Source of the DNA: Sideroxydans sp.
GTDB taxonomy: Bacteria > Pseudomonadota > Gammaproteobacteria > Burkholderiales > Gallionellaceae
Direction of reading: 5' to 3'
Assembly: GCA_028707175.1 (NCBI GenBank)
Contig: JAQTUV010000005.1
Span: 271,618 to 335,617 of the forward strand
DNA: 64,000 bases
Part shown: piece by piece, positions 24,020 through 25,695 of the stretch
Layout of the letters: the number at the start of each line of letters is the position of its first letter
How positions within the stretch are numbered: position 1 is the stretch's first letter
Notes under the pieces: generated by a model
What the model was told of the DNA's origin: nothing
What the model saw: the letters and a program-made list of their open reading frames with translations, nothing else
Database searches by the model: none
Position numbers and translations under genes: made by a program

Positions 24020-24173
24020 TGGTGTCTTTGTCGGAAAAATTGGGGGGCTCTAAAATTTTGAGCCCAATTAAATCAAGACATTCCATGAGCGTTTCCGATT
24101 TAGGCACCTTGAAGGTGTACTTGTCGGTGATTTTTGGGGTGTCTACTTTACGTTGGGCGTCAGGAGGATGCTA

Positions 24174-25004
24174 GTGGCGAACAAAATTCCTAACTCAGTA
24201 ATCGGTGCCGTGTCATCGGTTATCGCTGCGTACTACTACAGCCATTCGAAACTGAACACTCTCTTTATGGAATGCGGTGCGCCGGGTGATGCACCAGAGG
24301 GAAACTGCGAAGCTAAATGCAGCGCATGGCTGAAACGTTGCAACGATGCTCCCGGTGTTGATGCACTTGCTGTTCTTGGTCGGGTAATCCAGCATTTCAT
24401 GGATCAAGAGCCGTCCGATTTCCGCCCTGAAATTGAAATAGGACAACGGCGTATCAGAGATAGCCTTTCAAGAAATCAACTCAGCTATCAGGGCAATGGG
24501 CATGTGACACTAGCCGGGGCAAGCCCCGCAGCCAAAACACTTATCGATTTTCTACGGGCGGGAGATTTCCCATCTATTGAAGTCGAGTTTAATCGAGCGG
24601 TGTCGCAGTTAGACAGCGACCCACACTCCGCAATCACGGCTTCAAGCTCGATCATCGAGGCGCTGTGCAAAACCTACATTGAGACTTTTGGCATTGAAAT
24701 GCCAAGCAAGCAAACAGTTGTTCCGCTTTGGCGAGCCGTGCAAACACACTTGGGCCTCAATATCGACCCAACGCTCGAAGATGACCAAAAAAGAATCCTT
24801 CAAGGGTTAACATCTATCGTAGATGGCATCGGTGCATATAGAACGCATATCGGCTCGGCACATGGGCGCGGTGTTCTGCCACCAGCAATTCAGGTTTCTG
24901 AAGCGCGGCTGGCCGTTAATGCATCGCACACACTGGTGATCTTCATCATGGAGCGTTGGCACGCAACCAAGCCTCCCATCAACACTGAACTGGTTAGGCC
25001 TTAA
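24174..25004 (+). CDS. Abortive-infection family protein (Abi_C-like C-terminal domain)
   Basis: 'SSSIIEALCKTYIETFG...YRTHIGSAHGRG...RLAVNASHTLVIFIMERW'; GTG start 6 nt after AGGAGG. Confidence 0.75.
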   Translation: MANKIPNSVIGAVSSVIAAYYYSHSKLNTLFMECGAPGDAPEGNCEAKCSAWLKRCNDAPGVDALAVLGRVIQHFMDQEPSDFRPEIEIGQRRIRDSLSRNQLSYQGNGHVTLAGASPAAKTLIDFLRAGDFPSIEVEFNRAVSQLDSDPHSAITASSSIIEALCKTYIETFGIEMPSKQTVVPLWRAVQTHLGLNIDPTLEDDQKRILQGLTSIVDGIGAYRTHIGSAHGRGVLPPAIQVSEARLAVNASHTLVIFIMERWHATKPPINTELVRP

Positions 25005-25006
25005 AA

Positions 25007-25624
25007 ATGAAGAAAATCGTATTTCTTGTCTTGTTGCTTGGGTTCACGCAATCAGCTTTTTCTTGGTCTCGCTTCGACCCTTATCCAACACCTGCTGATC
25101 AAGAAACACAATTAAAGCTAGAGGAAATGCAACGACAATTACAGCAGGCTGAACAAGCTGCCGAAGAGCTACGAAATGAAATGCTTCGATCCTCAATCAG
25201 AACCAAAAACAACATATATTTGGGCGTGGTATTGTTGGCAATAAGTGGGTTCGTTATCTACCTCATATCAAGAAGAAATAAGGAAAAACCAATGGACGAA
25301 AATCAAAAATATGGTGTTGTCACGATGCTTGTTTCGTTTTTGCTAATGCTGTTGGCTTTGATGATTTCAGAAGGTTGGAACCCTCAGCTAGACTATCTTG
25401 AAAACTTCATGAACCTGCTGAGAATTCAACTGATTGAAATCAAAACAGAGCGGCCCTATGTTGCAAACGATTTTCTTTCTGGGGGCTTTGACTATAGTTA
25501 TTTGATCAATCTCCCAACAAAATATGTCGCTCTAGCTTTTATGAGTACTGCGGCTTATGGTTTGACATCCTACCTCGGCATAACCCCTGCTTTCAGGCCG
25601 TGGAAGAAAGCCTCCGTAAAGTAA
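25007..25624 (+). CDS. Hypothetical membrane protein with signal peptide, coiled coil and about 3 TM segments
   Basis: Starts 2 nt after the Abi-like stop; 'KLEEMQRQLQQAEQAAEELRNEM' then hydrophobic helices; ends 8 bp before attC. Confidence 0.7.
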   Translation: MKKIVFLVLLLGFTQSAFSWSRFDPYPTPADQETQLKLEEMQRQLQQAEQAAEELRNEMLRSSIRTKNNIYLGVVLLAISGFVIYLISRRNKEKPMDENQKYGVVTMLVSFLLMLLALMISEGWNPQLDYLENFMNLLRIQLIEIKTERPYVANDFLSGGFDYSYLINLPTKYVALAFMSTAAYGLTSYLGITPAFRPWKKASVK

Positions 25625-25632
25625 TGGCAACC

Positions 25633-25695
25633 GCCCAACCCGACATTCAACCCGGACTCCGCAAAAGCACGGAGCCGGTTAATTTTACGTTAGCA
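25633..25695 (+). other. attC recombination site
   Basis: GCCCAAC-CCGACA-TTcAACCCGGaCTCCG-caaaagca-CGGAGCCGGTTAA-TTTTAC-GTTAGCA: inverse core, 6-nt spacer, L''/L' arms with the characteristic unpaired base, 6-nt spacer, GTTAGCA core. Confidence 0.85.

What the first reader, a model, noticed from the sequence alone, without database searches (positions are those of the whole stretch)
24152..25695. Lone integron gene cassette with a two-gene, probably defence-type, payload and self-consistent boundaries
Seen directly: a 63-bp attC-like site (25633-25695) starts 8 bp after the stop of the second ORF. It has inverse core GCCCAAC, 6-nt spacer, paired arms TTcAACCCGGaCTCCG / CGGAGCCGGTTAA with the expected unpaired base, 6-nt spacer and core GTTAGCA. 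The decisive detail is at the other end: about 1.5 kb upstream lies G^TTGGGC (24152), the exact reverse complement of GCCCAAC. In an excised circular cassette these two cores form the matching attC ends. Known: TyrR-type integron integrases (IntI) cut between G and TT of such cores. Inference: IntI moved this 1537-bp unit here as one cassette.
Basis: partly seen in the sequence, partly recalled or inferred. Interest (0 to 1): 0.9.

Follow-up and report, generated by a model that had tools for sequence, protein, structure and literature searches.

The report
Gene cassette at an orphan integron attI
A phage-defence-like gene sits in a single, precisely bounded integron cassette, docked not at a random place but at one of four copies of the integron's insertion site (attI) in this genome, only one of which still has the integrase gene, and related bacteria carry the same kind of scattered docking sites.

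Summary
A covariance model built without this site hits 25633-25695 end to end (66.5 bits, genome-wide E 3e-12). The cassette is 24153-25689 (1537 bp), and its start core mirrors its attC core exactly. A homologous AbiJ cassette in another genome shares sequence only from the crossover onward.

Bases 24022-24154, between the pyrC stop and the cassette, are a copy of the attI of this genome's own integron (E 8e-22 with a model trained without it). The genome has four such attI sites, each followed by cassettes, but one intact intI gene (on another contig). attI sites without intact intI are common in Gallionellaceae and relatives: 31 of 55 scorable exact-pattern sites. Several genomes have 2-5 attI and one intI. 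The pyrC-attI junction recurs in other genomes with different first cassettes. I infer that one integrase serves dispersed attI sites in trans.

The payload is an AbiJ-type HEPN protein (catalytic motif invariant) plus a membrane/coiled-coil protein; anti-phage function is inferred. No empty site was found. A CALIN with its own attI was reported once before, in a Shewanella prophage. A second lone cassette (TIR gene) lies at 62138-63014 without attI.

The parts
22967..24019 (+). pyrC (dihydroorotase); its stop codon directly abuts the attI block
   Evidence: Pfam Amidohydro_1 4e-25; orthologous pyrC-attI junction in other genomes
24022..24154 (+). orphan attI (intI-less copy of the host integron's attI), ending at GTT
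   Evidence: model R2, window not in training: 78.7 bits, E 8.1e-22 genome-wide; alignments; no intI trace upstream
24152..24153 (+). left crossover point G^TT (cassette starts at 24153)
   Evidence: homologous cassette in L182 aligns from this base on, not before it
24153..25689 (+). integron gene cassette, 1537 bp
   Evidence: start core TTGGGC mirrors attC R'' GCCCAAC exactly; attC by covariance model
24174..25004 (+). AbiJ-type HEPN (Abi_C, PF14355) protein, 276 aa, GTG start
   Evidence: Pfam 1.2e-17; PADLOC AbiJ 1.9e-12; RTHIGSAH motif invariant in 30 sequences; 276-aa homolog 95% identical
25007..25624 (+). ORF2: predicted membrane/coiled-coil protein, 205 aa, 2 nt after the stop of the AbiJ gene
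   Evidence: 36 homologs, mostly on short metagenome contigs; model with long helices, mean pLDDT 70
25633..25695 (+). attC site (R'' GCCCAAC ... R' GTTAGCA; last six bases belong to the flank)
   Evidence: covariance model R1: 66.5 bits, full length
25696..25735 (+). right flank; AACTAAAGGGGTCAG... is shared with G020 and, from CTAAAGGGGTCAG, with G015, which have other genes and no recognised attI or attC before it

Best explanation
It is a single integron gene cassette carrying an AbiJ-type HEPN gene and a small membrane-protein gene, inserted at an orphan attI site that lies immediately 3' of pyrC. The chromosomal integron's IntI (encoded on another contig of the same genome) recombined the folded attC of the circular cassette with the G^TT of this attI in trans; the genome holds three attI platforms without intact intI besides the complete integron. 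The cassette lies in the direction of pyrC with no terminator-like structure between them, so it is probably read from pyrC or from a promoter in the attI block. Shown: cassette boundaries, attC, attI homology, one intact intI, recurrence of the pyrC-attI junction with other cassettes. Inferred: action of IntI in trans, transcription, anti-phage function.
For: attC model hit trained without the site (control). Exact mirror of start core and R''. Homologous AbiJ cassette in G424: similarity absent before and strong after the crossover (alignment score -7.0 against shuffled -8.2 +/- 4.5 upstream; 112.5 against -7.4 +/- 6.7 downstream). attI block: DNA match to the platform at C8:290 kb E 5.9e-20 and to the intI-linked attI 2.7e-5, model E 8.1e-22. 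One intact IntI, 492.9 bits. Same junction of pyrC stop and attI in L129 and L162 (stop 132-133 bp before the crossover), shortened in L133 and L097, further off in L069, with different first cassettes. Similar attC types in the main array and in the C17:179 kb platform. No terminator-like site between pyrC and the cassette.
Against: No empty pyrC-attI and no strain pair with and without the cassette was found, so trans insertion is not seen directly. The pyrC+attI label is scattered on the pyrC tree (5 changes for 6 rows), so its history includes losses or lateral transfer. The cassette could have been in place before intI was lost from this spot, although the shared junction with different first cassettes argues against that. 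The attI match to the intI-linked copy in this genome is 80% over only 46-50 bp.
Confidence: 0.8

Rival explanations
1. Decayed second integron: a complete integron once stood at pyrC, captured the cassette with its own adjacent IntI, and then lost intI by deletion; no action in trans is needed.
For: attI sites with only a 5' intI remnant are common: 13 of 60 exact-pattern sites, and in this genome the C17:179 kb platform keeps a remnant of codons 6-29 with stops. [quoted passage not shown]
Against: No intI trace at pyrC in the genomes checked; the pyrC stop / attI junction is the same across genomes while the first cassettes all differ, so exchange went on after the junction arose.
Confidence: 0.25
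2. Insertion at a secondary, non-classical genomic site (attG) as described by Loot et al. 2024, not at an attI.
For: Cassettes at such sites exist; the second lone cassette in this window (62138-63014) has no attI in front of it and looks like one.
Against: The 133 bp in front of the cassette match the attI model at E 8.1e-22, with the crossover at the predicted base.
Confidence: 0.03
3. The conserved block is a dispersed repeat or regulatory element unrelated to recombination, and cassette starts coincide with its end by chance.
For: It is present several times per genome and overlaps the intI promoter region.
Against: Where intI is present next to the block, it begins about 132 bp upstream of the crossover, on the side away from the cassettes, and at the three platforms without intact intI in this genome the attI half core mirrors the first attC exactly; in sites without intI the last 20 bp are 93% like the consensus against 67% for the 5' part.
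Confidence: 0.03

Closest known systems
CALIN / single-attC element (IntegronFinder terminology)
   Same: attC-bearing cassette with no intI nearby, as defined in PMC9024848
   Different: Preceded by a recognisable attI, which that paper says is not detected outside class 1; a single-attC element falls under its default threshold of two
[quoted passage not shown]
   Same: attI-bearing cassette array without its own integrase, in a cell with an intact IntI
   Different: One case in a cryptic prophage; here a recurrent chromosomal feature of a bacterial clade, up to five attI copies per genome, some at a conserved junction
attG insertion (Loot et al. 2024, Nat Microbiol 9:228, cited in PMC12901181)
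   Same: Cassettes placed outside the integron by IntI
   Different: attG sites are neither attI nor attC; this one is an attI homolog
AbiJ (HEPN superfamily, PMC3710099)
   Same: HEPN domain with intact RxxxxxxH motif, Abi_C Pfam hit
   Different: Its N-terminal part was not matched to a named AbiJ-NTD here; linked to a membrane protein gene in this cassette

Membership tests
Integron gene cassette | attC site with R''/L''/L'/R' architecture | tested here: met
   covariance model 66.5 bits, full length, site not in training
Integron gene cassette | start half core complementary to own attC R'' | tested here: met
   TTGGGC / GCCCAAC exact
Integron gene cassette | boundary shown by a homolog in another context | tested here: met
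   left boundary with L182; the right boundary could not be tested this way because the attC after the G424 gene is degenerate
Integron gene cassette | empty site in relatives | tested here: inconclusive
   no relative with pyrC-attI and no cassette found
attI site | homology to an attI next to intI, first cassette joined at G^TT | tested here: met
attI site | recombination with attC by the cognate IntI | not testable with these tools
   needs an assay
Complete integron | intI adjacent to attI | tested here: not met
   pyrC stop abuts the block; no intI remnant; intI only at C8
AbiJ / HEPN RNase | Abi_C domain and invariant R-x6-H motif | tested here: met
   fold search gives HEPN domains at probability 0.95-0.97 but with non-significant E-values
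Anti-phage system | protection against phage | not testable with these tools
   needs an assay

The most novel reading that the evidence does not exclude
A distributed integron: one integrase serves several dispersed attI docking sites that have shed or never kept their own intI, some held for long times behind housekeeping genes such as pyrC, so that cassettes can occupy a first, expressed position at several loci at once.
Probability: 0.45. Interest if true: 0.75.

Novelty: new variant of a known kind. Interest (0 to 1): 0.58.

Why it matters
Integrons are described as one integrase, typically one attI, one array. If the attI sites without intI are used in trans, this clade has multi-locus integrons, many elements filed as decayed CALIN would be working docking sites, and surveys that search only for intI and clustered attC miss them. 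The pyrC-attI locus gives a simple test system, with natural variants carrying different cassettes at one junction.

Tried and rejected
A first attC scan by cores and fold energy did not list the site; home-made scores and plain folding (z about -1.9) are poor attC detectors, so a covariance model was used. An Rfam scan gave only a tandem glycine riboswitch. The closest right-flank relative (G020) has another gene at this place and no attI, so it is not an empty site. The pyrC tree does not decide between one gain with losses and lateral spread. One paper search with attI terms was swamped by unrelated words. The PDB profile search with the AbiJ alignment found nothing. The ORF2 model is of low confidence and was not used for a fold search.

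Full report
Observation. The attC was tested with a covariance model built from 11 attC sites of this genome's other arrays and of relatives, without the window site and its near copies. It hits 25633-25695 over all 65 positions, 66.5 bits, E 6.5e-14 in the window and 3.0e-12 in the genome. Same-genus genomes with no intI and no attI (G001, G016, G032, G033) have 0-2 hits, at most about 39 bits. The same attC sequence recurs at 82-96% identity in six other relatives, one of them from another family.

Cassette boundaries. The start half core TTGGGC (24153-24158) and R'' GCCCAAC are exact mirrors. An independent test came from genome G424 (same family): an AbiJ homolog (76% protein identity) lies in an array of about five attC hits, behind an attC that ends CTTTACG^TTGGGC. 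The 100 bp before the crossover show no similarity to the window (score -7.0, shuffled -8.2 +/- 4.5) and the 300 bp after it do (112.5, shuffled -7.4 +/- 6.7). The attC after that homolog is degenerate (21.7 bits), so only the left boundary is confirmed this way.

The integron of this genome. There is one intact IntI, TIGR02249 492.9 bits, at C8:330086-331027; the window is on C17. Leftward of it runs an array of about eight cassettes. Its attI ends TTTTTTCGGGTGTCTACTTTAG^GTT in the numbering of the printed sequence, with the conserved GTT at the junction.

The main finding. The 133 bp between the pyrC stop and the cassette are homologous to that attI. A sequence model from 24 attI (window not included) finds exactly four attI in the genome: the intI-linked one, C8:290829-290961, C17:179332-179463, and the window site 24022-24154 (78.7 bits, E 8.1e-22). 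The other two platforms without intact intI carry three to four attC hits each by the model, plus truncated ends seen by eye. At all three platforms without intact intI the first cassette's start core mirrors its attC exactly; in the main array one base differs. The C17:179 kb platform retains a stop-ridden remnant of intI codons 6-29 (a weak match, read by eye and by tblastn); the window and C8:290 kb sites show none.

How general it is. An exact attI pattern hits 60 loci in GTDB representatives, mostly Gallionellaceae, Nitrotoga, Sulfuriferula and Methylophilaceae. Of these, 24 have intI beside them (3 cut by a contig edge), 13 have only a remnant of 31-108 codons, 18 have no trace with at least 1.3 kb to look at, and 5 cannot be scored. 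With the attI model, 23 of 400 genomes of the order have it and eleven, this genome included, have two or more copies, up to five. The ten other multi-attI genomes each have a single intI, as does this genome. In them the further attI sites lack an adjacent intact intI where that could be scored.

The pyrC-attI junction. In L129 and L162 the pyrC stop lies 132-133 bp before the crossover, as in the window. L133 and L097 have the same junction with an internal deletion; L069 has a degenerate attI further from pyrC; L070 has a 40-codon pyrC 3' fragment joined to attI at another place of genome G019. First cassettes differ in all. A shared junction without intI but with different cassettes implies exchange after intI was gone, hence IntI from elsewhere. 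On the pyrC tree the label is scattered, so losses or lateral transfer also took part. In sites without intI the last 20 bp are 93% like the consensus and the 5' part 67% (intI-linked 96% and 78%); detection bias towards the core and shared ancestry weaken this.

Payload. The first gene is an Abi_C / AbiJ protein with the HEPN motif RTHIGSAH invariant across 30 sequences. The predicted structure resembles HEPN domains at Foldseek probability 0.95-0.97 but with non-significant E-values. ORF2 has 36 homologs; one AbiJ homolog and one ORF2 homolog come from contigs of the same length (1855 bp), which suggests, but does not show, that the pair occurs elsewhere. The G424 cassette lacks ORF2. Mechanism, by analogy with HEPN Abi proteins (PMC3710099): infection-triggered RNA cleavage; a sensing or membrane role for ORF2 is a guess. 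Anti-phage cassettes in integrons are known (Darracq et al. 2025, as described in PMC12409362).

Comparison with the literature. The IntegronFinder 2.0 paper states that attI outside class 1 is not detected and that single-attC CALIN are not reported by default, so a site like this one is easily overlooked. [quoted passage not shown] The search covered an open-access library only, so priority is not established.

Verdict. The lone cassette by itself is a new member of a known kind. The orphan attI it sits in, and the repeated pattern of several attI and one intI, make it a new variant worth testing.

Noticed in passing
window 62138-63014 (-): A second lone cassette: TIR-domain gene (62193-63008, TIR_2 5.8e-17) ending in an attC at 62132-62198 (52.7 bits), start G^TTAGCC mirrored by R'' GGCTAAC, no attI in front; next to an engB-like GTPase gene.
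   Followed up: partly
G000 C9:312-314 kb, C9:574-576 kb, C10:49-53 kb (L190-L192): Further attC sites and clusters without a detectable attI in the same genome.
   Followed up: partly
L021 9118-9185 and 11937-11988: The 3' end of the gene before the C17:179 kb platform is repeated (roughly 85% by eye) after its last cassette.
   Followed up: no
L070 (G019 C5): A pyrC 3' fragment joined to attI and a cassette, away from the intact pyrC: the pyrC-end plus attI unit seems to have moved.
   Followed up: no
intI remnants beside attI (L104, L126, L136, L144, L146 and others): Most remnants keep only about the first 30-60 codons of intI; perhaps a promoter for the cassettes is kept there.
   Followed up: no
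window 25697-26356: AACTAAAGGGGTCAGACTCGAATTAA motif followed by a DUF4160/DUF2442 gene pair, shared with relatives in a variable region between pyrC and the gamma-carbonic-anhydrase-like gene.
   Followed up: partly
window 40528-40705 (+): Tandem glycine riboswitch aptamers.
   Followed up: no
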